A DNA stretch of 41,240 nt, taken from NCBI GenBank assembly GCA_031262525.1, contig JAISHM010000015.1:1-41240 (forward strand), given 5' to 3'. The translations under genes were made by a program, and so were the position numbers. The first letter of the stretch is position 1; every line of letters begins with the position of its first letter. This document shows positions 8,980-41,137 of this stretch, in pieces. The stretch comes from Rickettsiales bacterium (GTDB lineage: Bacteria > Pseudomonadota > Alphaproteobacteria > Rs-D84). Below the pieces are notes generated by a model. The model saw only the letters and a program-made list of their open reading frames with translations. It had not been told where the DNA came from and searched no databases.

Positions 8980-8983
8980 CGAG

Positions 8984-12600: not shown

Positions 12601-12622
12601 CATAAAACAAAAGGAGTTACAG

Positions 12623-13435: not shown

Positions 13436-13489
13436 CATAAAAAATGGCGCGTCAAATGGCGCGCCATAAAAAAACAAAGAGGTTTTCCA

Positions 13490-13717
13490 ATGGCTTTCCA
13501 AAATAAAAACTTGTCTGTAATTGCGTATGCAAATGGCTTTACCCTGTGGCACTATGCCGCTGATGAGTCTATAAAAACAATCAGCGCGACCGGATATTTT
13601 AATCCGATAAAATCTTTGATGAATACTGGCGACATAATTATCATCAACGCAAACGATGATACAGCAATCAAAAAAATAAAATTTTCCGCGCAAAACATAA
13701 ACACAACAAATTTATAA
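13490..13717 (+). CDS. Small phage structural-type protein
   Basis: MAFQNKNLSVIAYANGFTLWHYAADESIKTISATGYFN...GDIIIINA; in register with the cassette. Confidence 0.6.
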   Translation: MAFQNKNLSVIAYANGFTLWHYAADESIKTISATGYFNPIKSLMNTGDIIIINANDDTAIKKIKFSAQNINTTNL

Positions 13718-13739
13718 CAAAACCAAAGGAGACCATAAA

Positions 13740-14267
13740 ATGTTAACAACCATAGACCTGTGTTCAATGGCATTATTAAAAATTGGTGAAAAACCGATTT
13801 TATCCTTGAACGAAGAAACCCCAACCGCTGCAATTTCACGGACTTTGTTTGACCAATCTATAAATTATGTTTTGTCGTTGCATCCTTGGAAATTCGCGAC
13901 ACAAAAAATAACACTGACAAAAACAGACGGGGGGGATTTTGCCCTGCCCGTAAATGTCTTGCGTGTAATTGACTGCGACTGTGCGCTGTATCAAGTATCT
14001 AATAATCGCGTCGCTGCACCTGTTGATACAATTGAGATAACCGCAATCATCAAAGTCAATCCAGAAAATATGCCATCTTATTTTGTAAATGTGGCAACCC
14101 TGTATTTGGCACGCGAATTTTGTATGCCACTGACCGGAGATCAAAATTTACTGCGCACTATCGCAGCGCTATACGAATCTGAATTACGCGCCGCAAAATT
14201 CATAGACAGCACAATGTCAAATGCAAATGACATTGAAAACTTTTCTTTAATCAGTGCGAGGTTTTAA
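13740..14267 (+). CDS. Phage tail tubular protein A-like
   Basis: MLTTIDLCSMALLKIGEKPILSLNEETPTAAISRTLFDQSINYVLSLHPWKFA. Confidence 0.75.
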   Translation: MLTTIDLCSMALLKIGEKPILSLNEETPTAAISRTLFDQSINYVLSLHPWKFATQKITLTKTDGGDFALPVNVLRVIDCDCALYQVSNNRVAAPVDTIEITAIIKVNPENMPSYFVNVATLYLAREFCMPLTGDQNLLRTIAALYESELRAAKFIDSTMSNANDIENFSLISARF

Positions 14268-14269
14268 TT

Positions 14270-15994: not shown

Positions 15995-16012
15995 TAAACA
16001 AAGGAGTAAGAA

Positions 16013-16363
16013 ATGTCACAACTGGTAACCGATGTCACAGATATACTGGACAATAAACAAGATAAAAAAGCCGCAGAATCGGAACGTAAAAAAATACTGG
16101 AACAAATAAAGGCAGATGAAAAAACAAAAACTAATCTGGTAAAAAAAGCGTTGGCCACGCAACGCGCAAAATTTGGCGCGGCGGGGATGTCGGCAAATGG
16201 CATCACCGAAGAAGCCGTTCTGAAACGTCTGCGCGAAGAAACCGAAGAACCCTATGCAGAAAAAAAGAAATCTAATCTGGCAAAATTATCCGCAACAAAA
16301 ACAAAAAAATCCAATTTGTTAAAGTCTATGCTGGGGCGCATCGGCGACCTGTTTGTGGGATAA
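16013..16363 (+). CDS. Small coiled-coil phage-associated protein
   Basis: MSQLVTDVTDILDNKQDKKAAESERKKILEQ...; RBS AAAGGAG. Confidence 0.6.
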   Translation: MSQLVTDVTDILDNKQDKKAAESERKKILEQIKADEKTKTNLVKKALATQRAKFGAAGMSANGITEEAVLKRLREETEEPYAEKKKSNLAKLSATKTKKSNLLKSMLGRIGDLFVG

Positions 16364-16364
16364 A

Positions 16365-16952
16365 ATGACCGCTGATTTTTTTTTAAATTCTTGGAATAAA
16401 ATTCTGGGATTTGATACACCGCGCCATCACCGCGATATTTTGGATTTTTTGGTGCAGTCGTTGGATACACCACCACGACGCGCCCTGCTGTTGGCTTTCC
16501 GTCATTCAGGAAAATCGTCAGTAGTTGGAATTTTTGCAGCTTGGGTTTTATCCACACGACCAAAAACACGAATCTTGATTTTATCAGCGGAATCATCGCT
16601 GGCATCGCGAATGGTTTCGCATATAAAACATATTCTGGAAAATCATCCTGATTGCACCGATTTAATTCCAAATGTAAAAAAAGAATGGGGAACACATAAA
16701 ATCACAATTTCGCGCCCGATTGGTATTCGCGAACCATCGGTAATTTGCCAAGGGATTCACGGAAATATCACCGGTATGCGCGCAGACCTGATAATCTGTG
16801 ATGATGTCGAGGTTCCAAACACCAGCAACACAGCGCAAAAGCGCGCCGCCCTGCGCGAACGTTTGCGCGAACTGGATTTTATTTTATCCCCGAATGGCAC
16901 GATGATTTATATTGGAACACCGCATACAATGAACACAATTTATCAAACATAA
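16365..16952 (+). CDS. Phage terminase large subunit, ATPase domain only (C-terminally truncated)
   Basis: Walker A LLLAFRHSGKSSVVG, Walker B LIICDDVEV, GTMIYIGTPHTMNTIYQT-stop; no nuclease domain follows. Confidence 0.8.
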   Translation: MTADFFLNSWNKILGFDTPRHHRDILDFLVQSLDTPPRRALLLAFRHSGKSSVVGIFAAWVLSTRPKTRILILSAESSLASRMVSHIKHILENHPDCTDLIPNVKKEWGTHKITISRPIGIREPSVICQGIHGNITGMRADLIICDDVEVPNTSNTAQKRAALRERLRELDFILSPNGTMIYIGTPHTMNTIYQT

Positions 16953-16976
16953 AAACGCGGGATACCCCGCGTTTTT
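16950..16976. terminator. Bidirectional terminator between converging genes
   Basis: AAAAACGCGGGATACCCCGCGTTTTTT. Confidence 0.8.
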
Positions 16977-19900
16977 TAATTACGACCTTGCATCATTGCC
17001 AATATTTCGGCTTTTCGTCCTAATTTTTTTTGTTTAATATCACGCAATTTTTTTGACCCATTTTGGAATTTTTCTTTCTTAGATTCAGTGTATGTATTCT
17101 TTTCTGGTGATTCTGGCAATTGTTCAGTATCACGTGTTTCTATTGTTTCAGTTTTTGGTTTTTCTTGTATGGGTTCTGCGTATGTTTTTGTTTCTGATAA
17201 TTCTGTTTTTTCTTTTTCAGCCTTAGACTTTTCATTCTTAGAATAATCAGGTTTATACGGCACAGGTTGATATAAATATGATTTATCCCCCAGTAAATCC
17301 ATACCACCCAATTCTTGGATTCGTTTCATCAGCGCATCATCTTTTTGTTGCAATTCCGAATCCTGATATTTGCCGCCATAATTTTTTGTACCTGGATGTT
17401 CTTTTTGTTGTCGCAAGCTCACTAATTCTTCTATTGCATTTTGTAAATCATAACGATGATATGCATCGGCCTTGGCCGCGTTCAAGACACTATCATTTGG
17501 ACGCCCAAGTTTATTCAACAAAGTTTGCAATTTTTGTTTGATATCTTTTTGTTGCGCCCATAGTTTATCGGCTTCGGACTTTTTGAGTCCTGGCTTTTGG
17601 CGTTTTTGTTCGATATCCACAATTTGCTTTTCCCACAGGTCCAGATTATTCGCCTGGGCACGGGTTATTTCCATAACCTTACCACGTCCAAATTTATGCC
17701 CCTGTATTTTATCTTTTTGTTGCCGAGCCTCATACTCCGCGCGATACTTTTTATCTTTTTCACTCAGATTAGTCGGGTCTTTTGCGTCATCGCCCAGCGT
17801 CCGTTTTTTTGTTGTTTTTTTCTGTTGTGTTGGCGTTTGTTTTACTTCTTCATACTCGACATCTTCGATATGCTCTGGCAATTGCTTTCTCACAGGGGCT
17901 TCGGGTAATTGTTTTTGACCGGCGTGTTCTGGCAACGCTATAATTTCTGGTAATTCCAGTTGTTTTGTTCTGGTTACTTCGGGCAACTCTATAACATTTG
18001 GCTGTTGTTGTTTTTCCTCGATATGCTCTGGTAATGCCAAGGTTTCTTCGTGCGCCGGTAATTGTTTTTGCTCTTCTTGCACTTTTTCTGGTGCTTTTTC
18101 CGGCACTTTTTCTGGTGCTTTTTCTGGTGCTTTTTCTGGTACTTTTTCAACTGGCTTACCCTCTATCCTATCCAGCAAAGCACCCGCGCGGTCCCGCAAC
18201 TGCGCAAATTCTTGCTTGGTTTCTGGGGCATAATTACCCAGCATACCCAGACCATAAGGGGTTTCAACCGGTGTATAGGTTGTTGTTTCAAACGGTTGCA
18301 TTGCCTGACCAGAGCCCTCCATCACGGTTCTTGTTTGCACATTTTGGAATTCGTGATTTTGGGGATTCGCTTCATTATACGCGTCTATACTCGCGCCCAT
18401 CGCGCCCCGTCCCGCAAATCCACCACCAATAACCGCGGCAGCATTCGCCAATGACCAAGTTAATGCTTCTTTGGTTCCCAAACCGCTGGCCTTTGCGTCT
18501 TTATAAGTCGCAATCGCATTGGTCGCGCCCCCCAGCGCCATAGACCCCGCCCCCAATGCCATCGCCGCCTGGGATAATCCGGACGCACCAAAAATCATTG
18601 CGATTGACGCCAATGCGGTCGTCCCCATCGACGCCATCATACGTTTATCTTTCAGAAAAGCCTTTATTCCCGCAGGTTTCCCAGCAGCCTTTTGTGCCTT
18701 GCGCCATTTACGAACCTGGACCGCGCCATTTGCAATTCCCAGTGTAATACCAATTGCCGCCATGGACATTGCCAAACTGATGCCCGCCGTTGCCGCCGCC
18801 GCCGCCGCAATACCAGTTATCGCCGCCGACACCAAAAACGCACTGCCGAATCCTTTCAGAATACGGGTAAACATTTTTATTCGCGCTTTACGCTTATCAA
18901 TTTTGTTATTATTCGCGAAACGTGTATCTTTATGCTTATCAATATCCTCGATAGGCTTGAACATTTTTCCAAACAAAGCCCCCGCCATTGGCGCATTATC
19001 TTTTAATTTTGATTTTAACCGACCCGCCATTCCCGCGGTTTGATTTACCTGGGCATCCAACGCCGCGTTATATCCGTCGTCAGAAATATATCCGCCTTCT
19101 TTGGACATACCAGTAATAAAATTATTCAGAAATTTTTTATCGGTAAATTTTTCCGGTTCTTCGCCAGCAACCTTACCCACCCTGTCCGCGGATGAAATTT
19201 CGAACAACTTAAACGGGATTCTGTCCTCGATATCGGATTGCAATTTTTTATCGGTTATTTTATTGTTCGGCGACGATACATTTTGCATAACGACATCTGT
19301 CCGCGCCAACTGGATAATACGACCCAGACGGCTGTCCGCCGCCAGTTTATAACCTTTTTTATATTCTGCCGAAGGCTTCCCCTGTAAATCCTTGAACTGG
19401 GGAATTACATTTCCATCCGCGTCCAAAAATTTATATTTTGATATCAAACTCATTGTTTTATCGGACACCTTAAACGAGTCCGTACGCTTCATCAGATTAT
19501 CCCAATGTTTTGCCAATTTCGGCGCATCGTCGGATTTTAATTTATCCATACCCCATTGTTGGTCGTATTGTTTTATAAACTCTTCCAAACTTGCCTTATT
19601 CTTGCCGATTTGTTTAATTTTTTCCTTGTCTTCCTGAACATCCAAATCAGGCTGACGCGCGTCAAACATTTTGTTATAACCATCATAAACATCCGCAATG
19701 TTTGTCGTGTCCGCAAAATAATACCCAGAATTAGTCGCGAAATCCGCATTCAAACCATCCATTCGCGCACCCAATTTTTCCAGACGCGCCGTCAATGTCG
19801 TTTTATCTACTGATTTATCATTTTTGATTTTGTCCCTTGTCGCGGTATAAGCATTTGCCAATGTCGCAGGTGGCGCCATATTAAACAATTCATCGTTATC

Positions 19901-20614
19901 TATAATCTTGTCAATAAACTTTTCAGAAAATTCTGATGCCTGTTTTTCGTCTAAATCTTTGATTTTTCCAATAACTTCGGATATTGTTTTTTCATCAGTC
20001 TTTTTATGGTCGACCGCACTGATTAAACCCATATCCAGATAAACATCCATCGCAACGCGGTCCAACATATACTGATTCTTATCAGAATAAGGCGAACGAA
20101 TCCGCATTTTTTCCAGGTCATTTTTAATTTCTTCTACTTGCTCTATACTGATTTTTGTTTCGGGCTGCTGTTGTGATTGTGATTGTTGTTGTCGCCCTGG
20201 ATTTGTATTTTCATTTTGCGCGACTGGGTTATTTAATTCCGCTGTATTTTCTGTATTATTTTCTGCTGCGTCTTGCGCGTCTTGCATTTCCTGCCCATTT
20301 TTTTCTTCGGCGATTTCTGCGGCATTTGCATAATCATCCAGTATCCCCAGAAATTTTTGTATAACCTGTTCCCCCGCCATGGTGAAGTGCACCTTTTGGT
20401 CGGTGTTCGCGCCATATTCTGTCCCAAATAATTCCAGATAACGAACAAATTCTTTCAACGCGGCGGGTTCCAGCGTCAAATTATCCGATGCAAAATCATT
20501 TAATGTCTGCTGTTGTTGGTCCCACAACGCATTCGCCACGTCCGAGCCCTTATCCTGGGCCTCGAGTTGACCTATGGCGTTTTTAATTTTTTCCAATGTT
20601 AAAATGTCAGCCAT
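16976..20614 (-). CDS. Very large uncharacterised protein with hydrophobic Ala/Gly-rich core and PEK / LPE repeats
   Basis: Single ORF; start placed at MADILTLEK (20614) behind AAAGGGAAAGAG; EKVPEKAPEKAPEKVPEKAPEK and LPEHIEE...LPEVT...LPEIIALPEH. Confidence 0.85.
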   Translation of the reverse strand: MADILTLEKIKNAIGQLEAQDKGSDVANALWDQQQQTLNDFASDNLTLEPAALKEFVRYLELFGTEYGANTDQKVHFTMAGEQVIQKFLGILDDYANAAEIAEEKNGQEMQDAQDAAENNTENTAELNNPVAQNENTNPGRQQQSQSQQQPETKISIEQVEEIKNDLEKMRIRSPYSDKNQYMLDRVAMDVYLDMGLISAVDHKKTDEKTISEVIGKIKDLDEKQASEFSEKFIDKIIDNDELFNMAPPATLANAYTATRDKIKNDKSVDKTTLTARLEKLGARMDGLNADFATNSGYYFADTTNIADVYDGYNKMFDARQPDLDVQEDKEKIKQIGKNKASLEEFIKQYDQQWGMDKLKSDDAPKLAKHWDNLMKRTDSFKVSDKTMSLISKYKFLDADGNVIPQFKDLQGKPSAEYKKGYKLAADSRLGRIIQLARTDVVMQNVSSPNNKITDKKLQSDIEDRIPFKLFEISSADRVGKVAGEEPEKFTDKKFLNNFITGMSKEGGYISDDGYNAALDAQVNQTAGMAGRLKSKLKDNAPMAGALFGKMFKPIEDIDKHKDTRFANNNKIDKRKARIKMFTRILKGFGSAFLVSAAITGIAAAAAATAGISLAMSMAAIGITLGIANGAVQVRKWRKAQKAAGKPAGIKAFLKDKRMMASMGTTALASIAMIFGASGLSQAAMALGAGSMALGGATNAIATYKDAKASGLGTKEALTWSLANAAAVIGGGFAGRGAMGASIDAYNEANPQNHEFQNVQTRTVMEGSGQAMQPFETTTYTPVETPYGLGMLGNYAPETKQEFAQLRDRAGALLDRIEGKPVEKVPEKAPEKAPEKVPEKAPEKVQEEQKQLPAHEETLALPEHIEEKQQQPNVIELPEVTRTKQLELPEIIALPEHAGQKQLPEAPVRKQLPEHIEDVEYEEVKQTPTQQKKTTKKRTLGDDAKDPTNLSEKDKKYRAEYEARQQKDKIQGHKFGRGKVMEITRAQANNLDLWEKQIVDIEQKRQKPGLKKSEADKLWAQQKDIKQKLQTLLNKLGRPNDSVLNAAKADAYHRYDLQNAIEELVSLRQQKEHPGTKNYGGKYQDSELQQKDDALMKRIQELGGMDLLGDKSYLYQPVPYKPDYSKNEKSKAEKEKTELSETKTYAEPIQEKPKTETIETRDTEQLPESPEKNTYTESKKEKFQNGSKKLRDIKQKKLGRKAEILAMMQGRN
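18080..18155. repeat. 12-bp tandem repeat (GCTTTTTCTGGT) encoding PEKx units
   Basis: About six imperfect copies inside the large CDS. Confidence 0.85.
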
Positions 20615-20761
20615 CTCTTTCCCTTTAATTATCATATAATTTTATCATATTTTTGTATTTTAGACAAACACTATTACAACAACGATAGATTTATAAAATC
20701 GTGCTTGTAAAACCCAATATAATCCATTAAAATCGTCGTAATAAAATACAAAGGAAGTTAA

Positions 20762-28332: not shown

Positions 28333-29016
28333 TTATTCCACGTTCCCTATGTTTTCCAATTCTGATTTTAATTTTTCCCAATTTGGTAATTTTGCGCCCA
28401 ACATCGCAAAGAACGCCACAGAATGGTCGCGATGATAATAATGACATAATTCATGCGTGATTACATATTCAATGCAGCGTCGGGGAGCAAAGATTAAATT
28501 TGGATTCAACATAATTATGTCTGGCGATAAAAAACTGCCCCATCGTTTTTTCAAAACACGAATTTTCATTTTTATATCTGGCAAATCATTAAATTTCTGA
28601 CGCACCCGTTTAAGTGCCAGCGCAAATTGTTTTTGCGCCATTGCGGACAACCAATTATCAAGGATTTCTTGATTGCGAGCCTGCTTTTTTGGCAACACAG
28701 AATATACAATCAGGCGTTCTTTTTCTAATTCCACATATTCGCGAACCTGTGGTGTTTTCTTTATAATAATCTGATATTGTTTGCCCAGATAACAAAAAGC
28801 CGCGCCGCTGATACACTCATTACATTTATCTTTATGAAATTGCCCGAAAAATATCAGTTGTTTCGCAATCCATAAATGTTTGCGCCGCACAAAGTCCGCA
28901 ATTTCGTCATCGGTTGCCTGTACCGGCGCATGCGCAACAATGGAACAATCTGGTAAAATATGAATTGCCAGTGTTTTGCGTTTTTCACGAATAGTTTCGT
29001 AATTATAAGTGCTCAT
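28333..29016 (-). CDS. YgjP-like (DUF45/M48-type) metallopeptidase
   Basis: LKKRWGSFLSPDIIMLNPNLIFAPRRCIEYVITHELCHYYHRDHSVAFFAML; HELCH zinc motif. Confidence 0.9.
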   Translation of the reverse strand: MSTYNYETIREKRKTLAIHILPDCSIVAHAPVQATDDEIADFVRRKHLWIAKQLIFFGQFHKDKCNECISGAAFCYLGKQYQIIIKKTPQVREYVELEKERLIVYSVLPKKQARNQEILDNWLSAMAQKQFALALKRVRQKFNDLPDIKMKIRVLKKRWGSFLSPDIIMLNPNLIFAPRRCIEYVITHELCHYYHRDHSVAFFAMLGAKLPNWEKLKSELENIGNVE

Positions 29017-32000
29017 AATTATTGACCGCAATATCCCACGCCGCTTGTTCTATTTTTGCAAATTCGGACGGGTTTATGTCCAATCCTAATTCACTGCGTA
29101 CATAATCATACAAATAATCGTCAATTTCATTTTTGACATTGCGTTCAACATCAATGTTTTTCTGCCAATCAACACGACGATTTGATTGAATGATTTTAAC
29201 AATATCACTGACAATTCCGGCAATTGTAATTTCATCAGACGGAAAATCAGATTTCAGATTTCTAAAAAACGGGTGTGTGATTTTAACACCACGAATTTGT
29301 TCTGGGATATCACTATCCTCATAATTATCAACCGAAGATTGCAATTCTTTCATCTTATCAAATAATGATGCAATGTCTTCTTTTTTTGCGGCACGCAATT
29401 CGTCCAACAATTTATCTATGCGGTCGGAAAAGTTTTGATAAAACTTGGCATCTTGGTTATAACGCTCTTTGATAATTTTCTTTGTCTGGGCGGCAATGGC
29501 CTCCGCCTTGCTGCGCGCGGACATTCCATTTTCAGAATCTTCCACAAATTGATTAAATTCACGCACATCCGACAGGTTGATTTCTTTGGATAATTCCTCA
29601 ACTTTATTCGCAGATACATATTTATCCAAAATCTTATGCAACTGGTCGCGGTATTTGGAAAAGTCAATCACTTCGCCCATCGCCAAACGGGTCGTCTTTT
29701 TAAGTTCCGCAAATTGTTTAATCGCAAGACTGTATTTTTCCAGTTCGCCTGACGAGAACTTATCTTGAAAATCAGGCAACGCCAAACAATTGGAAAATAC
29801 ATTTATAAAGCGATTTACATCATTATAAAATTTGTCGCGTTCCACTTCGTGTTCATCTGCTTTCAGATAATTCAACATTTCATCAGGATTTTTCATACCC
29901 TTGAAAGTGTCGCGCAGGTTGTCATACAGCGCGCGCAATTCATTTACTTTTTCGTCGGTTGAAATCAGCGCGCCATTTATATCATCGGGATTAAAGTTAG
30001 AAAACAATATCATCGCATCTTTCAATGCCTTTGCATTCATTGAATAGTCAACAATTAGACCCGATGTCTTTTTCTGTTTTCCCGCGTCCCCGCCAAAAGT
30101 ACGATTTACACGGGCAATCGCCTGTAATAAATTATGGTCTTTTAATTGTTTCGCTAAATATAAAACCGTATCGCGCGGCGCATCAAAACCGGTCAGTAAT
30201 TTATCCACAACAATCAACAATTCCACACCGCCAGGTTTCTTAAACTGGTCAATAATGGCGGTTTCGCGTTTTTCCAGTTTTCCGTAAAGTCGTTCTTGCT
30301 CTTTCAAATACTTTGCAACCTCGGCTTTCATTTCTGGCAAATTATCGTCATCTGGGTCATCGGTCACGCCAGAGATAATAACCTCACTGCTGACACCACC
30401 TAATAAATCCAGCGCATGCTTACACATAACCGCGGCGTATTTAGACGGCATAACAATCTGCCCCTTTAATCCAGTATTTTGAAAGTTATCAATGTAATGG
30501 TCGTGAATATCCAGCGCAATCATTTCAATGCGTGAATTATTATCCGCCATCATTTTGGAAAGTCGCGCCTTTGCCTCAAAATCTTTTTTCTGTGGCTCGG
30601 TCATTGTCGCTGTTATACGATTGTAAAATTCGTCCAGCATAACCTTGTGCGTGGTCATCGGAATATATCGTGCCTGATAAACCAGCGGTAAAATTGCGCC
30701 ATCTGCCTCGGCCTCGGAAATGGTATATTTATCAATGTATCCGCCCCATTTGACTTCATCTTTTTTCTGCGCTTTCATCAATGGCGTTCCGGTAAATCCG
30801 ATATAGCACGCATTCGGCATCATCGTTTTCATAAATGCGTGCGCTTCGCCCCCTTGGGTGCGGTGTGCTTCATCAACAAGGACAAAAATATCGTCCGATT
30901 TATCAACAAAGGTTGATTTTTTCAACTTTCCGAATTTTTGCACCAGGGTAAATAAAACGTCCAGATTTTTACCTTTGATTTGTTTTTCTAAATCAGTGGA
31001 ATTTTTAACATCGTGAATATTTTTCTTTATGTTGCAAGCGGCAAATGTATCTTTGATTTGTCGTTGCAGGTCGCGCCGGTCGGTTAAAATAATTATGCGC
31101 GGATTCCCCAGTTTTGCGGTCAATTCCCGCACCAACATAACCATGGTCAGGGATTTTCCCGACCCCTGGGTGTGCCAAATTAAACCACCACGGCGGGGTG
31201 TTTCCATAACACGCACCATTGTTTTTTGTATGGCAAAGTATTGCTGATAACGGGCGATTTTTTTAATCCCGCCGTCATAAAATACAAAGCCCTTTATAAT
31301 ATCCAAAATTCGTTCGGGACGCAGCAGATTATAAATCCCGCGTGATTGTTCATTGTCGGAAATCCCCGCAAAGTTATATGGGTTGCGAATTAAATCACGA
31401 CAAATCTGGGCAACAACCACGGGATCGGGATTAAAATCTGGCAAAACGGCATCGGGTTCTTTCCAAACGGAATAATAATCCGGCGGGGTCAGCATTGTTC
31501 CATATTTGAAAGCATGCCCGTTTGTGCCGATTAAAATTTGCGGGAATAAAAAGAATTTCGGTGTCTGCGCGCCTTGCTGGTTGCGCCACATTTGGTCCAG
31601 TGCCTCGCGCACATCAACACTGCCGCGTTTGCATTCAATAACGGCAATGGGCAGACCGTTGATAAATAAAACAATATCCGGTCGGCGGTCGGTTATTTCG
31701 GATATTTCAAATTCTGCGCAAACATAAAAATCATTGTTATTGTTGGCGGGATTTTTGAAATCAATAAAGTTCATTTGCGGGGATTGACGGCGACCGTTTA
31801 TAATCTCGGACACTGCCTTGCCAGCAATTAAATCGGAATAGATATTTTCAGACGCCTTTATAATACCGCCGTCCATATTTGCATTTTCAATTTCAATCAA
31901 TGCATCAATAATGGATTTTTCGGAAATGTTTGGATTGATGCGGGCAATTGATTTAACCGCCAATTCACGCAAGATGTATTGTCCACGACCGGCACGCAGT

Positions 32001-32119
32001 TCATTTACACGGGCGCGTGGAATATATTGATAGCCCAGCGCACACAGTTCGGCAATCGCCGGAATCTGGCTGATTGATGCCTCATCAAAATCAGGAAAGT
32101 CGTTATTTGTCATTATCAT
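29003..32119 (-). CDS. hsdR: Type I restriction enzyme R subunit
   Basis: PDIVLFINGLPIAVIECKRG; WHTQGSGKSLTMVMLVREL; VDEAHRTQGG; IGFTGTPLM; LTGFDAPRDTVLYL. Confidence 0.95.
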   Translation of the reverse strand: MIMTNNDFPDFDEASISQIPAIAELCALGYQYIPRARVNELRAGRGQYILRELAVKSIARINPNISEKSIIDALIEIENANMDGGIIKASENIYSDLIAGKAVSEIINGRRQSPQMNFIDFKNPANNNNDFYVCAEFEISEITDRRPDIVLFINGLPIAVIECKRGSVDVREALDQMWRNQQGAQTPKFFLFPQILIGTNGHAFKYGTMLTPPDYYSVWKEPDAVLPDFNPDPVVVAQICRDLIRNPYNFAGISDNEQSRGIYNLLRPERILDIIKGFVFYDGGIKKIARYQQYFAIQKTMVRVMETPRRGGLIWHTQGSGKSLTMVMLVRELTAKLGNPRIIILTDRRDLQRQIKDTFAACNIKKNIHDVKNSTDLEKQIKGKNLDVLFTLVQKFGKLKKSTFVDKSDDIFVLVDEAHRTQGGEAHAFMKTMMPNACYIGFTGTPLMKAQKKDEVKWGGYIDKYTISEAEADGAILPLVYQARYIPMTTHKVMLDEFYNRITATMTEPQKKDFEAKARLSKMMADNNSRIEMIALDIHDHYIDNFQNTGLKGQIVMPSKYAAVMCKHALDLLGGVSSEVIISGVTDDPDDDNLPEMKAEVAKYLKEQERLYGKLEKRETAIIDQFKKPGGVELLIVVDKLLTGFDAPRDTVLYLAKQLKDHNLLQAIARVNRTFGGDAGKQKKTSGLIVDYSMNAKALKDAMILFSNFNPDDINGALISTDEKVNELRALYDNLRDTFKGMKNPDEMLNYLKADEHEVERDKFYNDVNRFINVFSNCLALPDFQDKFSSGELEKYSLAIKQFAELKKTTRLAMGEVIDFSKYRDQLHKILDKYVSANKVEELSKEINLSDVREFNQFVEDSENGMSARSKAEAIAAQTKKIIKERYNQDAKFYQNFSDRIDKLLDELRAAKKEDIASLFDKMKELQSSVDNYEDSDIPEQIRGVKITHPFFRNLKSDFPSDEITIAGIVSDIVKIIQSNRRVDWQKNIDVERNVKNEIDDYLYDYVRSELGLDINPSEFAKIEQAAWDIAVNNYEHL

Positions 32120-32121: not shown

Positions 32122-33420
32122 TTAATTCCCCTTCGCTGGCGAAGGGGTGGCATCGGCGTCAGCCGATGACGGGGTAGTGGTTTTAACCCGTACTTCACCA
32201 GTCAGTAATTTTTGCATTAAACCCGCCTTTTGTTTTTCAATTGCGGTGCGTTGGCGTTCCAGCAAAGCAATCTCGTCATCCGCTGCAACCAGAATATCCG
32301 CAATCGCCGATTGTTCGTCGGTGGTTGCGGGGATAGAAAGATTTAATTTTAATAATTCCGAACGAGATAAATTATAACGAATTGCGCCTTGTGCAAATCT
32401 GTACATTTGTTTCCTAACATATTCGCTACGCAAATAAAAAGATGCGAAAACTGGCGACAAACTATCAAAATTATTTAATCTGAAACCAGTACAAAAACTA
32501 TTTAGATATGTTTTTATATTTGGCTCATAAAGTAATACTGACGATATTCCAACTTCATCTGGTGTTTCCGACGATGTTGTAAAAAACACATCTCCATATT
32601 TTACAGAATTTTGATTTTCATTATCTGAAACATTTACCAATGAAAGTTTATTTGCGTTAATTGTTGGTTCGCTATAAATAGCCATATATGTTATAAACGG
32701 ATTTCCAGCTCCAAAATCATCTTTATTTTTTCCAGTCAATCCATTAAACAATGTCCCAATCTCTCCCAACTTTACGACTTTCCAATCGGTGGTAAAACCG
32801 TGGGGGCGGAGGATTGGCGCGGTCGTACCATCGGCGACAGTCAGCATTTTTTGCATAAGTCCCCGCTTTTGCAATTTCTTTAATTCAATCCGCCGTTTCA
32901 GCAAGCCCAGTGCATTATCCCACTCATCCAACACCCCCGCAATACCTTCCTGCTCTGGCAATGGTGGGAGTAATATATTGATATCTGCCAATTCATCTTT
33001 GGTTATACCTTTTATAGCAAGCCCCTGACTTTTATCTATAATTTCATTTTTATGCTTTTTTATTATAAAAAATAAAAATTTCTTATTTATTAAATTGTTT
33101 GCTTGTAATATTGTTAAATCTTGATTTACTGCAAAGCTTTCTTCTAGAAACACTTGTTTGCCAACAGATACTCTTGTCACTAATATAGTATCATTAGCAT
33201 TCGCTATTTTTGCTGAAGAATTTTTTAACCCTGCCTCTGTTATATAATCACAACCTATAATTTTATCATTTTCTATATATCTGGCAGATAGCCATTTTAT
33301 ATTTCCATTCCAGAAATCTTTATTTTGTTTTGATGGAGTGCCGCCGGAAAACATCGAACATACATCGCCTAACGTTTTTTCTTGCCACCCATCAGGGATA
33401 AAATGAGTTTTATTTAACAT
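32122..33420 (-). CDS. hsdS: Type I restriction enzyme specificity (S) subunit, two target-recognition domains
   Basis: IPDGWQEKTLGDVCSMFSGGTPS...LPPLPEQEGIAGVLDEWD...DWKVVKLGEIG...QSAIADILVAADDEIALLERQ. Confidence 0.93.
   Translation of the reverse strand: MLNKTHFIPDGWQEKTLGDVCSMFSGGTPSKQNKDFWNGNIKWLSARYIENDKIIGCDYITEAGLKNSSAKIANANDTILVTRVSVGKQVFLEESFAVNQDLTILQANNLINKKFLFFIIKKHKNEIIDKSQGLAIKGITKDELADINILLPPLPEQEGIAGVLDEWDNALGLLKRRIELKKLQKRGLMQKMLTVADGTTAPILRPHGFTTDWKVVKLGEIGTLFNGLTGKNKDDFGAGNPFITYMAIYSEPTINANKLSLVNVSDNENQNSVKYGDVFFTTSSETPDEVGISSVLLYEPNIKTYLNSFCTGFRLNNFDSLSPVFASFYLRSEYVRKQMYRFAQGAIRYNLSRSELLKLNLSIPATTDEQSAIADILVAADDEIALLERQRTAIEKQKAGLMQKLLTGEVRVKTTTPSSADADATPSPAKGN
32128..32168. 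repeat. REP-like palindrome pair within the 3' end of hsdS
   Basis: CCCCTTCGC-TG-GCGAAGGGG and CATCGGC-GTCA-GCCGATG. Confidence 0.75.
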
Positions 33421-33932
33421 TTTTTCAACTCCATATATCCCTTTGTTTGCCTGTCAGTCCAATATTCAATTCTGATTTTGTTTAGATTTTTATTATCAAC
33501 TTTAATTTGCGCCCCACCATATTGAACTGGGTTTTTATCTTTGTGTTCACTCTTTGGGTCTGTTCTATAAACGTAAAACAACTTATTTTCATCATAAAAC
33601 CATTTACTGACGATACTTTCACCATGCATTTCATCGCTTAATATAATAACTTTTGTTGAGGAGAATGTTTGTTTAATTTCTACATTTACAGCTTTCTGAC
33701 CTTTTTTGCCCTTGTAGTTATAATGCAACTTGCCTTTCCATTTACCAGAGATATTATATTGGCGAATTATAATGGGCGAAAACCAACGCCATATAAAAAG
33801 GTCAAAGAAAATCCATACAACCGCAACAATCGCCAACACCAGCCCTGTGGCTCTTATATAATTTCCGAAAATAGAAACCGCCGCCCAGAATAAAGTAAGC
33901 AAAATAATAATGATTGAATCTTTTATCACCAC
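33414..33932 (-). CDS. cap15: CBASS effector, Cap15-like (2TM + beta-strand-rich domain)
   Basis: Two N-terminal TM segments, then NISGKWKGKLHYNYKGKKGQKAVNVEIKQTFSSTKVIILSDEMHGESIVSKWFYDENKLFYVYRTDP...; adjacent to a CD-NTase. Confidence 0.75.
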   Translation of the reverse strand: MVIKDSIIIILLTLFWAAVSIFGNYIRATGLVLAIVAVVWIFFDLFIWRWFSPIIIRQYNISGKWKGKLHYNYKGKKGQKAVNVEIKQTFSSTKVIILSDEMHGESIVSKWFYDENKLFYVYRTDPKSEHKDKNPVQYGGAQIKVDNKNLNKIRIEYWTDRQTKGYMELKKC

Positions 33933-34780
33933 AAAACCTCTATCATTTTCTCTGTAAACGCCTTAGCGTCGTCAATCGTCCATTTTTGTATTGAACTAAA
34001 TAATAACTTAATCTCATTTAATTCAACAAAAGAACTTGGATTTGTGCGTAAATATCGGCTCCACGCTTCTACTATGTTGCGCGCCTTGCCAAGGTAATTT
34101 TTCGACGAATCCATAATCAATGAATTATCAACATTATAGACCATGCACTCAATCAAGAACGAAGGAATATCATAATTTAAATCATTCTTTATTCCCTTAA
34201 ATATGCGAACCATCTGTTTATAATACCCGAGAGACATGGCATCTTTTAAATCACTGTTATTTTTATCCTGTAATGGATAATTCAAACTTCTGACTTGGTC
34301 GTTAAAAAAAGACATTATCCCATCACGACTATTGATATATTTATCATCTTTGGCAGGAATAGCTCCCACAACATCTGATTCGTGTTTATAGGATGTTTCT
34401 TTGATTTTAAATGCTTTTTTCCCATTTCTAACTTGGTCACCAAATCGTTCTTTTAATGCTTTTTCCAAATGTTTTCTATGATATTCACAAGATTTTCCGC
34501 CACCCTTATGGTCTGGGCTAATACATTGTTTTGGTGTATCAATTAAAAAATGTCCATCAAACAACACATAAATATCCACATCACTATCAATTCTAACATT
34601 GGTTTTGTTATGATATGAACCTTTCAGTTTAACAACAGGACAATTTAGTTCTGCGGCTTTCCAATCATAATCATCAATCGCCTCTTTAACCATTTCAATA
34701 GAATGGTTTGCTTTTGCTTGTTCTGTATCGGATAAATCTTTTGTAAATCCAATCAGAGAATCATTATCATATTTTAACAT
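33926..34780 (-). CDS. CD-NTase (cGAS/DncV-like nucleotidyltransferase)
   Basis: VVKLKGSYHNKTNVRIDSDVDIYVLF (GS...DxD) and ESDVVGAIPAKD (third acidic residue). Confidence 0.87.
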   Translation of the reverse strand: MLKYDNDSLIGFTKDLSDTEQAKANHSIEMVKEAIDDYDWKAAELNCPVVKLKGSYHNKTNVRIDSDVDIYVLFDGHFLIDTPKQCISPDHKGGGKSCEYHRKHLEKALKERFGDQVRNGKKAFKIKETSYKHESDVVGAIPAKDDKYINSRDGIMSFFNDQVRSLNYPLQDKNNSDLKDAMSLGYYKQMVRIFKGIKNDLNYDIPSFLIECMVYNVDNSLIMDSSKNYLGKARNIVEAWSRYLRTNPSSFVELNEIKLLFSSIQKWTIDDAKAFTEKMIEVLW

Positions 34781-34792: not shown

Positions 34793-36283
34793 TTACTTCA
34801 ACCCCAATTCTGTCAGGTATTTTTTCATTTTTGCGGTGGATTCGGACAGGCGCGCGTCTATATCCGCCAACTCCGCCGCGACCGCCGCCATATCAACGGG
34901 TTCTTCCGCCGTAAAGGTATCAACATAGCGCGGAATATTCAGGTTATAATCATTTTCCGCGATTTCCGCCGACTTTGCCAAATGTGAATACTTTTCAATT
35001 TCCGCCCGTGTGCGGTATGTTTCAACAATTTTATTTATCTGTTCATCCGATAGAGTATTTTGCGCTTTGCCAGGCACAAATTCACGGCTGGCGTCAATAA
35101 ACAGAACATCTTTGCGGTTTTCGTTTGTGCCGCCTGCCTCACGCGACCGGTCAAAAATCAAAATCGCAACAGGTATCCCAACCGTTTGAAATAAATTCGC
35201 CGGCAGACCAATAACTGCGTCCAACAAGTTTTCTTCCACCAGTGCACGTCTAATTGTCCCCTCGCTTGAACCACGGAACAAAACGCCGTGCGGAACAATT
35301 ACCGCAACGCGTCCGCTTTCGTTCTTTGCCGTTTCAACCATGTGCGAGATAAAGGCATAATCGCCCTTGGACTTTGGCGGCATTCCGCGCCAGAACCGGC
35401 GATAAATATCATTATCAAGTTTCGGTTCGCCCCATTTATCCAATGAAAACGGCGGATTTGCGACCACGACATCAAACTTCATCAATTTATCATTTTCAAT
35501 CAATTTCGGGTCGTTTAATGTATCGCCCCATTCAATACGCGCAGAATCTTCACCATGTAAAAACATATTCATTCGCGCCATATTGTAATTTCCACCATTC
35601 TTTTCCTGGCCATACAATGCGTAATTCCGTCCGCCGATTTCTTTTGCCGTCAGCAATAACAGAGAACCCGAACCACAAGTCGGGTCGCAGATTCTGTCCC
35701 CCGCCTTTGCGCCCGCAAGTTTTGCCAGCAATCCCGATACACTTTTCGGCGTGAAAAATTCCCCCGCTTTTTTTCCGCTGTCCGCGCCGAAGCGTTCAAT
35801 CAGATACATATACCCATTGCCCAAAATGTCGTCATCAACATCAGATAAATCAATCTTTGCAAAGTCATTTATCATATCGCGCAACATTTTATTGCGTTGC
35901 GCCGTTTGCCCCAGTTTTTCTGAATTAAAATCGGTTAAAAATATATTATCCAATGTTGGGCTGTTTGCGTCTTCAATCGCATGCAACGCTATATTGATTT
36001 GTTCGCCGATATTATCATCATTTTGATGTGCAAAAATATCATCAAATGCCGCGCCTTCTGGTACACGGAATCGTGCCAATTCCAGTTTGTTTTTTAACCG
36101 CTCTGGCGTGTCGCCGTATTGTTTAATCAATGCCGCTTTTTCTTTTTTATGCTGGTCAGACATATATTTATAAAACAAGAATGGCAAACTGTAATCCTTG
36201 AAATCCGCCGCCGCAACAATCCCGCGTGCAGAATCCGCTGCCGCCCAAAGTGTTTTATTCAATTCGTCTTGTGTTATTGCCAT
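34793..36283 (-). CDS. hsdM: Type I restriction enzyme M subunit (N6-adenine methyltransferase)
   Basis: GEFFTPKSVSGLLAKLAG; ICDPTCGSGSLLL; DVVANPPFSLDKW; GRVAVIVPHGVLFRG. Confidence 0.96.
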   Translation of the reverse strand: MAITQDELNKTLWAAADSARGIVAAADFKDYSLPFLFYKYMSDQHKKEKAALIKQYGDTPERLKNKLELARFRVPEGAAFDDIFAHQNDDNIGEQINIALHAIEDANSPTLDNIFLTDFNSEKLGQTAQRNKMLRDMINDFAKIDLSDVDDDILGNGYMYLIERFGADSGKKAGEFFTPKSVSGLLAKLAGAKAGDRICDPTCGSGSLLLLTAKEIGGRNYALYGQEKNGGNYNMARMNMFLHGEDSARIEWGDTLNDPKLIENDKLMKFDVVVANPPFSLDKWGEPKLDNDIYRRFWRGMPPKSKGDYAFISHMVETAKNESGRVAVIVPHGVLFRGSSEGTIRRALVEENLLDAVIGLPANLFQTVGIPVAILIFDRSREAGGTNENRKDVLFIDASREFVPGKAQNTLSDEQINKIVETYRTRAEIEKYSHLAKSAEIAENDYNLNIPRYVDTFTAEEPVDMAAVAAELADIDARLSESTAKMKKYLTELGLK

Positions 36284-36852
36284 TATGCTACCCCTATATT
36301 TTTTATAATTATATTATCAATTGCCGACATTGTCAGTTCCATCTGCCGATTATGCAATGTTGCCCAATCGTTAAACTCATTCGTCATTGCGACCAGTTTT
36401 TTTTGTAAATCCATCGGCGCGACCACGATTTCCAGTCCGCGCAATTCCGCCCCTGTGATAAATGGCTGAATCGTACCACCAGACATTTGCCGTTTTAACA
36501 TATTTTGTCCGACACTGCTGTTCAGGTACATTGCGATATATTCCGGCAAAATATCAGAGCGATTGATTCTCATTCGTAAAAATGAGGTCGGGACAATTGC
36601 CGCCGGCATATCCGATTTATACACCGCCGCCGCAAACCGTCCGCGCGCCAACAATATAATTTCGCCGTCCGTTAAAATATGCTTTTCGGGATTTTGAATT
36701 ATTATTGCCTTGGTTTCGTCAAAATTGATTTCTCCATTTGTAATGTCTTTGGGCTGAATCAAGGCGACGGTCGCGCCAGTTGTTGGCACTTCCTCCGTCC
36801 GCAAGGAATACCCCGCCCGAATATCTACAAAATCACCAAATTTCAATTTCAT
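36283..36852 (-). CDS. Short HsdS-like protein with a single target-recognition domain
   Basis: FGDFVDIRAGYSLRTEEVPTTGATVALIQPKDITNGEINFDETKAI...GGTIQPFITGAELRGLEIVVAPMDLQKKLVAMTNEFNDW. Confidence 0.75.
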   Translation of the reverse strand: MKLKFGDFVDIRAGYSLRTEEVPTTGATVALIQPKDITNGEINFDETKAIIIQNPEKHILTDGEIILLARGRFAAAVYKSDMPAAIVPTSFLRMRINRSDILPEYIAMYLNSSVGQNMLKRQMSGGTIQPFITGAELRGLEIVVAPMDLQKKLVAMTNEFNDWATLHNRQMELTMSAIDNIIIKNIGVA

Positions 36853-36929: not shown

Positions 36930-38078
36930 TTAATACAAAGTTTCGGAAGTGTTTGCTCTATATTTGCGTGCCTTGCGGTCGCCCACCGCGACCAGCGCAC
37001 CCACCGACACCAATTTTGCAAAGTATTTTTTAACGCTTTCCGCCGATTTGCCAGTGATTTTCTGTGCTGTCGCATTTGTAATTTCGCGCTCGTTCGCCAA
37101 CCAATCGGTAATCTGGAACAGAAAATCCAGTTCGTTATCGGTAATTTGTTTTAATTTATCGGTATTTACACCCAGTTTATCGGTAATTGTTTCCGTTTTA
37201 TCGGTATGTTCGGTTATTTTATCGGTAAAAATATACATATCCGCGTTATTCAATATATTATCTTCGCCCAGCAACATATTCCCGAAAAACTGATATAAAA
37301 AGTCAAAATTATACGGAATGTTTTTTGATAAACTTTGATAATTCGCGCGCACCAGCGCATTGCGGAAGAATTTAGAATACTTTTTGAACCAAGAATTATC
37401 CGCATCAAAGCCAAGTTGCCGCAGGTATTTTATTGCGAACACGGCGGTCGTGCGGGTGTTGCCTTCAAAAAACGGGTGAATCTGCCAGATTTTTGATATA
37501 AACCGTGCCATGTGTTCCATACGCACCCGCGCATCCATTTTGATATAATCAACCTTGCGCTCTTCGCCGAAATCATAATCCATAGATTCCGATATCGTGC
37601 CTGCAAATCCATATTGCACGGTATCGTATCCGATAATGGGCTCATTCTTTATAATGTTGCCGTCGGGAAACTCGGGCAATAATCCCGCCGCACGAACAAC
37701 GCCCGCGATTTTTGGATTTACATCACGAAACAGAAATTTATGAATTGTAATATACATTGACGGCGCGAATGTAAAAGACGGGTCGTTCAGTATTTGTGTA
37801 ATCAGGGTTGATACACGGGCAACTTCCTCTTTGTCTTCGCCTTCGGATTTACCCGCTTGGCTGGAATAGTATTTATCAACTTTTTTATATGCATCCGTAA
37901 TTGTGATTTTTCCGTCAATGTTATCGCGTGCAACATCCAATAAATACTTTGATGGGGTCAGTCCATCTACCGCCTGCAAACCAATGGCAATGTCCCAGTT
38001 TTGCTGGCGGGCGTTGCGCGAGGACGGCTCGCCCACGGGCTTGTATTCAGTAATAATTTCTGGCACTTTTGCCGGCAT
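36930..38078 (-). CDS. Fic/DOC family protein with C-terminal winged-helix
   Basis: Fic core HPFFEGNTRTTAVFAIKYLRQLGF; C-terminal ITNATAQKITGKSAESVKKYFAKLVSVGALVAVG; start set at ATG 38078. Confidence 0.9.
   Translation of the reverse strand: MPAKVPEIITEYKPVGEPSSRNARQQNWDIAIGLQAVDGLTPSKYLLDVARDNIDGKITITDAYKKVDKYYSSQAGKSEGEDKEEVARVSTLITQILNDPSFTFAPSMYITIHKFLFRDVNPKIAGVVRAAGLLPEFPDGNIIKNEPIIGYDTVQYGFAGTISESMDYDFGEERKVDYIKMDARVRMEHMARFISKIWQIHPFFEGNTRTTAVFAIKYLRQLGFDADNSWFKKYSKFFRNALVRANYQSLSKNIPYNFDFLYQFFGNMLLGEDNILNNADMYIFTDKITEHTDKTETITDKLGVNTDKLKQITDNELDFLFQITDWLANEREITNATAQKITGKSAESVKKYFAKLVSVGALVAVGDRKARKYRANTSETLY
37134..37233. repeat. 21-bp-period repeat inside fic encoding TDKxxxx heptads
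   Basis: TTATCGGTA every 21 bp, five copies; protein TDKITEH-TDKTETI-TDKLGVN-TDKLKQI-TDNELDF. Confidence 0.85.
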
Positions 38079-38129
38079 TATGAAACCCTTGTGTTTATTT
38101 GTTTTATTATACAATACTTATTCCAAATT

Positions 38130-38440
38130 ACCAGTATTTTCTAGCGATATATTGTATTTTTATGGGGGAGTGTTTTCTAGAAATATGATACATTTTTTCT
38201 AGAAAAATATAGTGGTGTTTTTTAAGAAAAAAGTATGCATTTTTCTTAAAAATCTGCGGGGTTCTTTATGATAGTTTTTTTCTGTAAATTCTTATGGAAA
38301 ACTTTCAATTTTCCGTTAAAAAATCTTTGCACCATACACACCCCCGCTGATGTAATTTTCTACAAATATCGCGCGGTTTTTGTAGAAAATTATAGAGTTG
38401 CATTTTTACAAAATTTATACACATTTTGTAAAAAATTATG
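38130..38440. repeat. Array of A/T-rich hairpins (~45-bp periodicity) upstream of fic
   Basis: TTTTCTAGAAA..TTTCTAGAAAA; TTTTTAAGAAAAA-AGTATGCA-TTTTTCTTAAAAA; GGAAAA-CTTTCAA-TTTTCC; TAATTTTCTACAAA-12-TTTGTAGAAAATTA; TTTTTACAAAAT-TTATACAC-ATTTTGTAAAAA. Confidence 0.85.
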
Positions 38441-38456: not shown

Positions 38457-39080
38457 CTAAATATGTAAATCGTAAATTGCAACCTGCACGTCGGCGGGAA
38501 TTGCAGAAATAATTTTGCGGAACTCTGTTTCCCATTCGTCGTCTTTCATAAATTTGTCTTCGCCTTCATACCAACGACCATTAAATAAAATTGCGCCCGT
38601 GGATTCTAATTTTTCGGGTTCTACTTCGCGCCAAATTGCGCTGTCTGCAAATTTGCCATCGCGAAAAGGCAACATATCTTTCCAACGTCCGCCCATTTGA
38701 TACCAATCCCATTTTGCCTGCGGGTTATACCAATATCCCCATCGTCCATTTGCGTCCGGTTCGCCCCCGTGGTATTCGCGTGCGAAAGTATCAAAGTCCG
38801 GATAAAATTCGTTGAACTTTACGCGTTCCAATTTTGCGCCCTTTGGGCATACAAATTCCTTTGGGGCTAATACATTTTTTTGAACCCAACATTCGTCAAG
38901 CGATTTAGCGTATTTATCAACTTTGCGCCCGTCCGGAAATACGACGCATTCCATTGTTTCATTTTCAAAACTTTCTTTGTATCCGTCTGTGCAATCATTA
39001 AAAGCCCACCGCATATTTTCGTTAAACGGGGCGAGTTGCCCTTCGGCATTCCCGCCAATAATTAAAACTGGAAAGTGCAT
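38457..39080 (-). CDS. Uncharacterised mobile-element-type protein
   Basis: GRWGYWYNPQAKWDWYQMGGRWKDMLPFRDG motif. Confidence 0.7.
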   Translation of the reverse strand: MHFPVLIIGGNAEGQLAPFNENMRWAFNDCTDGYKESFENETMECVVFPDGRKVDKYAKSLDECWVQKNVLAPKEFVCPKGAKLERVKFNEFYPDFDTFAREYHGGEPDANGRWGYWYNPQAKWDWYQMGGRWKDMLPFRDGKFADSAIWREVEPEKLESTGAILFNGRWYEGEDKFMKDDEWETEFRKIISAIPADVQVAIYDLHI

Positions 39081-39682: not shown

Positions 39683-41137
39683 ATGTTTTACCTATATAAA
39701 AACATAATACTAACAAAGAATTATAATATGTTTCCAGGGCGCCCAATTATAAAGACAGAGTTTGCGAATAAGGGTATAGTTTTTGTCGGGCGAGAACAAT
39801 TCATATTTAACGGAATAACATTTCATGATTTTTTGATTGATTTTATAAAATCCAAACTGGGATATAAATGGTTACGAGAACAAAGTTTAAAACCAGATGC
39901 AAATAAACATCCTATATTATTATGGTTTGCAGAAATTGGGAATCTGCAGAAAAGTGCAAAAACAAACGGTCGTGGATTATGGCAAGCACCATTATCTGGT
40001 TCTACAACTTCATTATTAAAATTAGCGTATTATATTTATTTACTTGGCAATAATGCAAAAATTGAAAATTTACTCCTTACGCGTCTGCGAAATAAGGAGT
40101 TGTTTTATGCTGCCTTATATGAGACTTATGTTGCATCAGTTTTTTTATATGCTGGCTATAACCTAGAATTAGAAGACGAAACAGATTCAACAAAAACTCA
40201 TTGTGAATTTACAGCTATAAATCGCAAAACAGGGAATAGATATTCAGTTGAAGCAAAATTAAGAAGTTCAAATGTTAATGATATTAAAGATGTTAAAATA
40301 TCTAACCAACTTATACGTGCATTAAAAAAACAAACTGATAATCAAAAGATAATTTTTATCGATGCCAATTATCCATTAAATTCAGAAAAAGAAATGAACA
40401 CGTTATTTGATAATATAGAACAACAAATAAATTTAATTGAATGTAAACAAAATCAAAAGGATGAAGCGTTTTTATTTATAACAAACAATCCCTATCATTT
40501 CAGAAACTTTACGCCTTCTCCGCAATCATCTGTATTGATTCGCGGTTTCAGAAAACCAGACTTTAATCTTATATTTCAACAAATATCTTTGCATCAAATG
40601 ATAGATTTAAGGGATAAATATCAAGATATATTAGACATACATGCCGCATTTCCAAATACATTAACAACACCGGATAATTTTAATGGCGATATTGTAGACC
40701 AGATATACAAGATTTTACCCATAAAAAATAAATATCAAATAAACAATAATTACGATATTACGATAAATAACAAAAATACAAATTTTACATTAAATAACTA
40801 TATCATTGATTATATAAATAAAGAGGTATTTCTTATATTTAAGAATAGTGAAGGTACAATATTACATATTGAAAGTTTAACGGACGATGATATAAAGAAT
40901 CACAAAGATGCTCAACAAAAAATGATAGATGCTATTGAACAAAAAAACAATAGAAATAAAAACCTTTTAGAATTATATGATTGGTTGTATAGTGTTTATT
41001 CAAATACTTCGAAAGATAAACTTATTGAATTTATGAGTAATGTTATAGATATGGATATATTAGAATCTAAAACTCAGAAAGAACTTGCAAGAATTTATTG
41101 CGAGGGCATGGCGCAACAAATATATTTCCATAAATAA
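39683..41137 (+). CDS. Uncharacterised protein with a PD-(D/E)XK-like motif
   Basis: ETYVASVFLYAGYNLELEDETDSTKTHCEFTAINRKTGNRYSVEAKLRSS; alternative start MFPGRPIIK (39728). Confidence 0.65.
   Translation: MFYLYKNIILTKNYNMFPGRPIIKTEFANKGIVFVGREQFIFNGITFHDFLIDFIKSKLGYKWLREQSLKPDANKHPILLWFAEIGNLQKSAKTNGRGLWQAPLSGSTTSLLKLAYYIYLLGNNAKIENLLLTRLRNKELFYAALYETYVASVFLYAGYNLELEDETDSTKTHCEFTAINRKTGNRYSVEAKLRSSNVNDIKDVKISNQLIRALKKQTDNQKIIFIDANYPLNSEKEMNTLFDNIEQQINLIECKQNQKDEAFLFITNNPYHFRNFTPSPQSSVLIRGFRKPDFNLIFQQISLHQMIDLRDKYQDILDIHAAFPNTLTTPDNFNGDIVDQIYKILPIKNKYQINNNYDITINNKNTNFTLNNYIIDYINKEVFLIFKNSEGTILHIESLTDDDIKNHKDAQQKMIDAIEQKNNRNKNLLELYDWLYSVYSNTSKDKLIEFMSNVIDMDILESKTQKELARIYCEGMAQQIYFHK

What the first reader, a model, noticed from the sequence alone, without database searches (positions are those of the whole stretch)
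38130..38440. ~45-bp-periodic array of hairpins with different but self-complementary stems upstream of the fic/hsd/CBASS operon
Seen: at least four strong inverted repeats (11, 13, 14 and 12 bp arms) and one weaker one (38296-38314). Stem sequences differ (CTAG, TTAA, CTAC.., TAC..) yet each keeps pairing. Three loops look alike (TATGATACA, AGTATGCA, TTATACAC) and are followed by a T-run. Centres near 38190, 38235, 38372 and 38418, with degenerate traces near 38145, 38275 and 38330, suggest a ~45-bp unit. Arm changes that preserve pairing imply selection on structure. Inference: multi-site operator, attenuator array, or a processed repeat RNA (type III toxin-antitoxin RNAs are also tandem repeats upstream of a toxin gene, though Fic is not a known type III toxin).
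Basis: partly seen in the sequence, partly recalled or inferred. Interest (0 to 1): 0.86.

Follow-up and report, generated by a model that had tools for sequence, protein, structure and literature searches.

The report
Repeated switch site for defence operon
In front of a prophage-borne anti-phage gene cluster lies a stretch of DNA with eight regularly spaced, mirror-image binding-site-like motifs, most likely a docking array for a repressor, probably the cluster's own first protein (a Fic enzyme with a DNA-binding tail); arrays this large are unusual but the general kind of switch is known.

Summary
Four perfect inverted repeats (arms 11-14 bp) lie at 38173-38434; 2000 dinucleotide shuffles never gave more than one. 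They are two copies, offset by 183 bp, of one unit with four half-sites TTTnnAnAAA spaced 22-24-22 bp. Stem changes between copies are mostly compensated, always Watson-Crick to Watson-Crick, while spacers are randomised. The array lies 95-356 bp before the minus-strand start of a Fic gene heading a hsd/CBASS cluster in prophage-like DNA. Such repeats are about tenfold enriched before Fic genes of the same bacterial family (window excluded: at least two in 6/43 versus 0/495 background genes). One sister Fic subfamily has four half-sites spaced 18-24-18, and a similar array precedes an unrelated prophage Fic in a relative. The Fic is predicted to end in a winged helix; its best structural match, CccR, is a Fic enzyme proven to repress itself through inverted repeats. 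Best reading: a multi-site operator, probably bound by Fic itself. Against this, the window Fic's closest orthologues lack the array, so the binder may be another regulator. Type III toxin-antitoxin, terminator and (for related hairpins) att-site readings were tested and not supported. New variant of a known kind.

The parts
38173..38206 (.). inverted repeat H1, TTTTCTAGAAA-N12-TTTCTAGAAAA (first pair of half-sites of unit A)
38219..38252 (.). inverted repeat H2, TTTTTAAGAAAAA-N8-TTTTTCTTAAAAA (second pair of half-sites of unit A)
38353..38392 (.). inverted repeat H3, TAATTTTCTACAAA-N12-TTTGTAGAAAATTA (first pair of half-sites of unit B)
38403..38434 (.). inverted repeat H4, TTTTTACAAAAT-N8-ATTTTGTAAAAA (second pair of half-sites of unit B)
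38173..38252 (.). unit A: four half-sites TTTnnAnAAA or complement at 38174, 38196, 38220, 38242 (spacing 22-24-22)
38356..38435 (.). unit B: duplicate of unit A, half-sites at 38357, 38379, 38403, 38425 (spacing 22-24-22)
38279..38288 (.). lone half-site TTTCTGTAAA between the units
38104..38134 (-). probable fic promoter: CTGGTA, about 16-bp spacer, TATAAT; several orthologues have CTGGAA-N16-TATAAT at the same place. Read by eye; the consensus scan did not list it
   Evidence: sequence
36933..38078 (-). Fic enzyme (motif HPFFEGNTR), 382 aa, PADLOC PDC-S72; predicted C-terminal winged helix at residues about 314-375, the candidate DNA binder
36286..36852 (-). single-domain HsdS-like protein
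34796..36283 (-). HsdM, type I methyltransferase
33929..34780 (-). CD-NTase-like oligonucleotide cyclase (CBASS)
33414..33932 (-). Cap15-like two-transmembrane CBASS effector
32125..33420 (-). HsdS
29006..32119 (-). HsdR
38460..39080 (-). 207-aa phage-type protein (phrog_10079) that ends just before the array

Best explanation
The array is a double-stranded DNA operator: eight half-sites in two duplicated blocks just upstream of the promoter of a prophage-borne defence cluster (Fic, HsdM/S/R, CD-NTase and Cap15). A dimeric winged-helix protein, most likely the first gene product (Fic) acting through its C-terminal winged helix, binds pairs of half-sites two helical turns apart and holds expression down. 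A fall in the free amount of that protein during infection, or on entry of the element into a new cell, would release it. Shown here: the array, its spacing, its duplication, its position, the enrichment of such repeats before Fic genes in this family, and (by prediction) the winged helix. Inferred: that a protein binds, that it is Fic, that binding represses, that the genes form one operon, and that phage infection relieves repression.
For: Far beyond chance. Regular helical spacing of half-sites, 22-24-22 twice. Position directly 5' of the likely fic promoter (sequence). Inverted repeats in 400 bp before Fic genes of the same family: 1.31 per kb against 0.126 per kb before 495 genes of this genome; window left out and GC stems removed, at least one in 12/43 vs 18/495 (p = 4e-7) and at least two in 6/43 vs 0/495 (p = 2e-7), spread over 8 and 5 of 27 Fic subfamilies. 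A sister Fic subfamily (L107, L108, L109, L110, L116, L146) has four half-sites spaced 18-24-18 (17 once in L116), with the core TTTACTTT/AAAGTAAA constant and an unpaired G/G at the arm ends kept in several loci, which fits sequence recognition better than pairing. An independent array with the same 13-8-13 plan lies before another prophage Fic in relative G155. Predicted winged helix with block-mean pLDDT about 75-93; Foldseek best match 7xux = CccR, then SoFic and CbFic2, all Fic enzymes with a C-terminal winged helix. CccR represses its own gene by binding AGATAATCAT-N26-ATGATAATCT (PMC9755527).
Against: The closest full-length orthologues of the window Fic (46-51% identity, L131-L141; some near-identical to each other) have no comparable repeats upstream, and at most two overlapping or scattered half-sites; only L006 has repeats, of another sequence. 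Most Fic subfamilies surveyed (19 of 27) show none. The variable stem positions covary, which plain protein recognition does not require. No binding or expression data exist. Foldseek TM-scores over the whole chain are low (0.32-0.41), so the structural match rests on domains, not on the overall arrangement.
Confidence: 0.5

Rival explanations
1. It is an operator array, but for another regulator, encoded by the prophage, a satellite or the host, not for Fic. Fic merely happens to be the gene behind it.
For: Fic orthologues with a similar winged helix lack the sites. Similar 13-8-13 repeats occur in the relatives in P4-type islands about 300 bp before alpA, next to HipBA or AbiE cargo without an intact Fic downstream, and 11 bp before an AbiEi-like gene in another family of the class (L204/L187). 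The window and G155 arrays both lie in prophage-like DNA.
Against: R1 hits outside the training set fall before Fic genes more often than expected (G155; G133/G066, about 250 bp before a Fic gene), and repeats before Fic genes are enriched in general. No regulator gene of this kind was identified next to the array.
Confidence: 0.22
2. The array acts as RNA: an attenuator, or a processed hairpin RNA as in type III toxin-antitoxin loci.
For: Both strands fold far better than shuffles (z = -5.1 and -6.7). Stem changes are compensated.
Against: Stability follows from any perfect palindrome. No one-sided (G-U) pair change among 117 cells, 12 of them changed on both sides (the set was partly chosen by pairing, so this is weak). 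Stems nearly free of G-C, no terminator-like site, no Rfam match above threshold, array upstream of the likely promoter, toxin gene not of the ToxN kind.
Confidence: 0.1
3. The repeats are recombination or replication sites: tyrosine-recombinase core sites (13-8-13 as in lox or FRT) or single-strand hairpin signals of the mobile element.
For: 34-bp symmetric sites with 8-bp spacers; in relatives, homology between islands ends exactly at such a hairpin.
Against: In those islands a better att candidate is the anticodon loop of tRNA-Asn, beyond a block of GCTACAC repeats on the far side of the cargo. No recombinase was found beside the window array among the proteins scanned. Arms differ between neighbouring sites.
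Confidence: 0.07
4. The hairpins have no present function; stems stay perfect because template switching during replication copies one arm onto the other after an old operator was duplicated.
For: Template switching creates and mends hairpins (PMC8794818). The array is missing in the closest Fic orthologues.
Against: Half-site core and spacing are kept in both units while spacers are randomised. Repeats with their own sequence recur before other Fic genes.
Confidence: 0.07

Closest known systems
CccR of Yersinia pseudotuberculosis (Fic domain plus C-terminal winged helix; PMC9755527, PDB 7XUX)
   Same: Fic enzyme with C-terminal winged helix and inverted repeats in its own promoter; best structural match of the window Fic
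   Different: CccR site is a single AGATAATCAT-N26-ATGATAATCT repeat; here eight half-sites at 22-24 bp spacing in two duplicated blocks, before a cluster with R-M and CBASS genes; binding untested here
AbiEi operators of type IV toxin-antitoxin loci (PMC3985639)
   Same: Winged-helix protein binding inverted repeats (TGTTGCTTTTA-N27-TAAAAGCAACA) before a defence operon; negative autoregulation
   Different: Different protein family; two half-sites only
BrxR/CapW-type WYL repressors of defence islands (PMC9122601)
   Same: Promoter inverted repeats (11-bp arms, 5-bp spacer) hold a defence island down
   Different: No WYL-domain gene recognised next to the array; here spacers are 8-12 bp and sites come in blocks of four
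RptR, repressor of a type I R-M / DarTG2 island (PMC12255303)
   Same: Repeated short palindromes (three TAGCTA) in the promoter of a type I R-M island
   Different: Direct repeats overlapping the -10 box; 9-kDa regulator, no RptR homologue recognised here
Type III toxin-antitoxin (ToxIN) repeats
   Same: Tandem repeats before a possible toxin gene
   Different: Repeats not near-identical, no terminator before the toxin, toxin is Fic

Membership tests
Fic-winged-helix autorepressor operator (CccR type) | Downstream gene codes for a Fic enzyme with a C-terminal winged helix | tested here: met
   helix-strand order H314-330, H335-342, H346-358, E362-365, E372-375, a prediction
Fic-winged-helix autorepressor operator (CccR type) | Inverted repeats in the gene's own promoter region | tested here: met
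   array 95-356 bp before the start codon
Fic-winged-helix autorepressor operator (CccR type) | Repeats conserved with the same Fic subfamily (supporting, not strictly defining) | tested here: not met
   closest orthologues have none; L006 has repeats of other sequence
Fic-winged-helix autorepressor operator (CccR type) | The Fic protein binds the repeats and lowers expression | not testable with these tools
   needs EMSA, footprinting and reporter assays
Type III toxin-antitoxin (ToxIN, CptIN, TenpIN) | Toxin of the ToxN/CptN/TenpN kind | tested here: not met
   Fic family
Type III toxin-antitoxin (ToxIN, CptIN, TenpIN) | Near-identical tandem RNA repeats | tested here: not met
   four hairpins with different stems and spacers
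Type III toxin-antitoxin (ToxIN, CptIN, TenpIN) | Terminator between repeats and toxin | tested here: not met
   no terminator-like site
Transcription attenuator or intrinsic terminator array | G+C-rich stem followed by a T-run | tested here: not met
   stems are nearly all A-T
Tyrosine-recombinase core (att) site | Crossover point at the ends of an integrated element | tested here: inconclusive
   for the related island hairpins the better att candidate is tRNA-Asn beyond the cargo; for the window array itself no recombinase gene was found, but the ends of the element were not mapped
Known structured RNA (Rfam) | Match above a family's gathering score | tested here: not met
   all matches far below threshold
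BrxR/CapW or RptR regulated defence island | Regulator gene of that family adjacent | tested here: inconclusive
   no such gene recognised between 25 and 41 kb; the contig ends at 41240

The most novel reading that the evidence does not exclude
A Fic AMP-transferase doubles as the master repressor of a combined type I R-M and CBASS cluster on a prophage, reading an eight-half-site operator, so that its enzymatic or binding state could switch on a whole set of defences when a phage or a new host is met.
Probability: 0.35. Interest if true: 0.65.

Novelty: new variant of a known kind. Interest (0 to 1): 0.45.

Why it matters
How defence islands are kept silent and released is poorly known; BrxR and RptR are among the few worked examples. 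If a Fic enzyme is the repressor, a toxin-like enzyme and the control of R-M and CBASS are one protein. Independently, the survey suggests that promoter inverted repeats are common before Fic genes in this family of bacteria, which makes CccR-like autoregulation a testable general rule.

Tried and rejected
(1) Repeat family dispersed in the genome: no other copies. (2) Att-site reading of the related island hairpins, suggested by homology ending at the hairpin: not supported once the GCTACAC block and tRNA-Asn were found on the far side of the cargo. (3) Strict conservation with the window Fic: not met. (4) Covariation as proof of RNA structure: A3 mixes in sequences found with a structure-based model (R1), so its pair counts are biased; in the orthologous island set the one variable pair is matched in five and mismatched in two of seven sequences (by eye). 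(5) Viral-contig pattern hit L067: taken as chance. (6) Fic relatives in Treponema and Bacteroides plasmids and in a faecal phage scaffold: no repeats upstream. (7) Rfam: nothing. (8) R2 hits in other families of the class: only G419 was looked into; the others were not followed.

Full report
What is there. The window is contig C20 of a 790-kb, 86%-complete genome. Its relatives of the same family are genomes of roughly 0.5-1.1 Mb; the taxon is not named by the tools, and an alphaproteobacterial placement is only my inference. Between the end of a 207-aa phage-type gene (38460, minus strand) and the start of a Fic gene (38078, minus strand) lie four perfect inverted repeats. Shuffled sequence never gives more than one. 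They reduce to half-sites TTTnnAnAAA (or complement) at 38174, 38196, 38220, 38242 and again at 38357, 38379, 38403, 38425. The spacing 22-24-22 is the same in both blocks, and the blocks align as a diverged duplication. One lone half-site sits at 38279.

How the stems change. Between H1 and H3 one stem pair differs and is compensated; between H2 and H4 three are compensated and the outermost is broken; the 8-bp spacers differ at 7 and 8 of 8 positions (sequence). It is compatible with pairing, with symmetric recognition by a protein dimer, and with copying of one arm onto the other by template switching (PMC8794818), so it does not decide among them.

Surroundings. The genes behind the array are Fic, a single-domain HsdS-like protein, HsdM, a CD-NTase, a Cap15-like effector, HsdS and HsdR, all on the minus strand. 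Window 25-41 kb looks like prophage or phage-derived DNA: an AlpA-like protein, the DUF6291 protein and the 207-aa protein have counterparts, recognised by eye, in a prophage of relative G155 that also has terminase-, portal-, capsid- and tail-like genes. In that prophage a RelBE-like pair, a hairpin array and a Fic gene sit between portal and protease. The array of the window lies directly 5' of a promoter-like CTGGTA-N16-TATAAT, a layout shared with several Fic orthologues (not listed by the consensus scan).

Comparative test. A covariance model of three of the window hairpins and one from G001 (R1), searched through 143 genomes of the family, found among its best new hits the G155 array before an unrelated SoFic-type Fic gene, and a site about 250 bp before an AbiEi-like/Fic fusion in G133 and G066. 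This prompted a survey of Fic genes. Forty-four dereplicated upstream regions hold 1.31 inverted repeats per kb against 0.126 for 495 genes of the window's genome. With the window left out and G+C-rich stems removed, 12/43 against 18/495 have at least one and 6/43 against 0/495 at least two (p = 4e-7 and 2e-7). The signal is spread over 8 of 27 subfamilies. The background comes from one genome only, Fic genes sit in A+T-rich mobile DNA, and a few loci of one subfamily are counted more than once, so the size of the effect may be overstated; the count by subfamily is the safer figure. In one subfamily six loci keep four half-sites spaced 18-24-18, the closest parallel to the window's 22-24-22.

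Who binds. The window Fic is modelled with a C-terminal winged helix. The best Foldseek matches are CccR (7XUX), SoFic and CbFic2. CccR binds inverted repeats in its own promoter and represses it (PMC9755527). This makes Fic the first candidate. Against it, the closest orthologues, three of which (L131, L132, L134) have a similar winged helix, lack the sites. Either the sites were lost or gained quickly, or the binder is another protein.

Related hairpins elsewhere. A second model (R2) found similar 13-8-13 repeats in P4-type islands of the family between alpA and HipBA or AbiE cargo, and before an AbiEi-like gene in another family of the class. Homology among the islands ends at the hairpin, which looked like an att site, but the likelier att is the tRNA-Asn anticodon loop on the other side of the cargo. 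R2 was trained on some of these, so whether they are homologous to the window's repeats is open.

Verdict. The likeliest function is a protein operator (about 0.7 in all), with Fic as the likeliest binder (0.5). Each ingredient has a known precedent (CccR, AbiEi, BrxR, RptR); the size, duplication and regular spacing of the array and its place before an R-M/CBASS cluster are, as far as I searched, new as a combination.

Noticed in passing
window 11429-20635: Genes of a T7-like phage (scaffold-like and capsid proteins) near two tRNA-Pro(GGG) genes at 8542-8618 and 8948-9042; the 1219-aa minus-strand ORF 16976-20635 has no Pfam or NCBIfam match.
   Followed up: no
window 36286-36852 and 32125-33420: A single-domain HsdS-like protein besides a full HsdS in one R-M locus, with CBASS genes between hsdM and hsdS.
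   Followed up: no
window 39683-41134: 484-aa ORF divergent from the DUF3768 gene, no match in Pfam, PADLOC, PHROGs or NCBIfam; contig ends just after it.
   Followed up: no
L196 9694-11600, L197 10014-11771, L199 10691-14456, L195 7840-8108: P4-type islands in relatives swap HipBA, AbiE or no cargo between a 13-8-13 hairpin and a block of GCTACAC repeats that leads to a tRNA-Asn half; the cargo starts right after the hairpin.
   Followed up: partly
L196 7388-7678: 97-aa ORF resembling only the winged-helix end of a window-type Fic, beside the integrase of an island with hsd genes.
   Followed up: no
L051 12000-16100: Two P4-type integrase/AlpA modules of the window's own genome lie beside tRNA(CAT)-like sequence.
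   Followed up: no
L196 about 9730-9910: HipBA promoter with repeated CTTACCGATATGTAAG-like palindromes, a likely HipB operator array.
   Followed up: no
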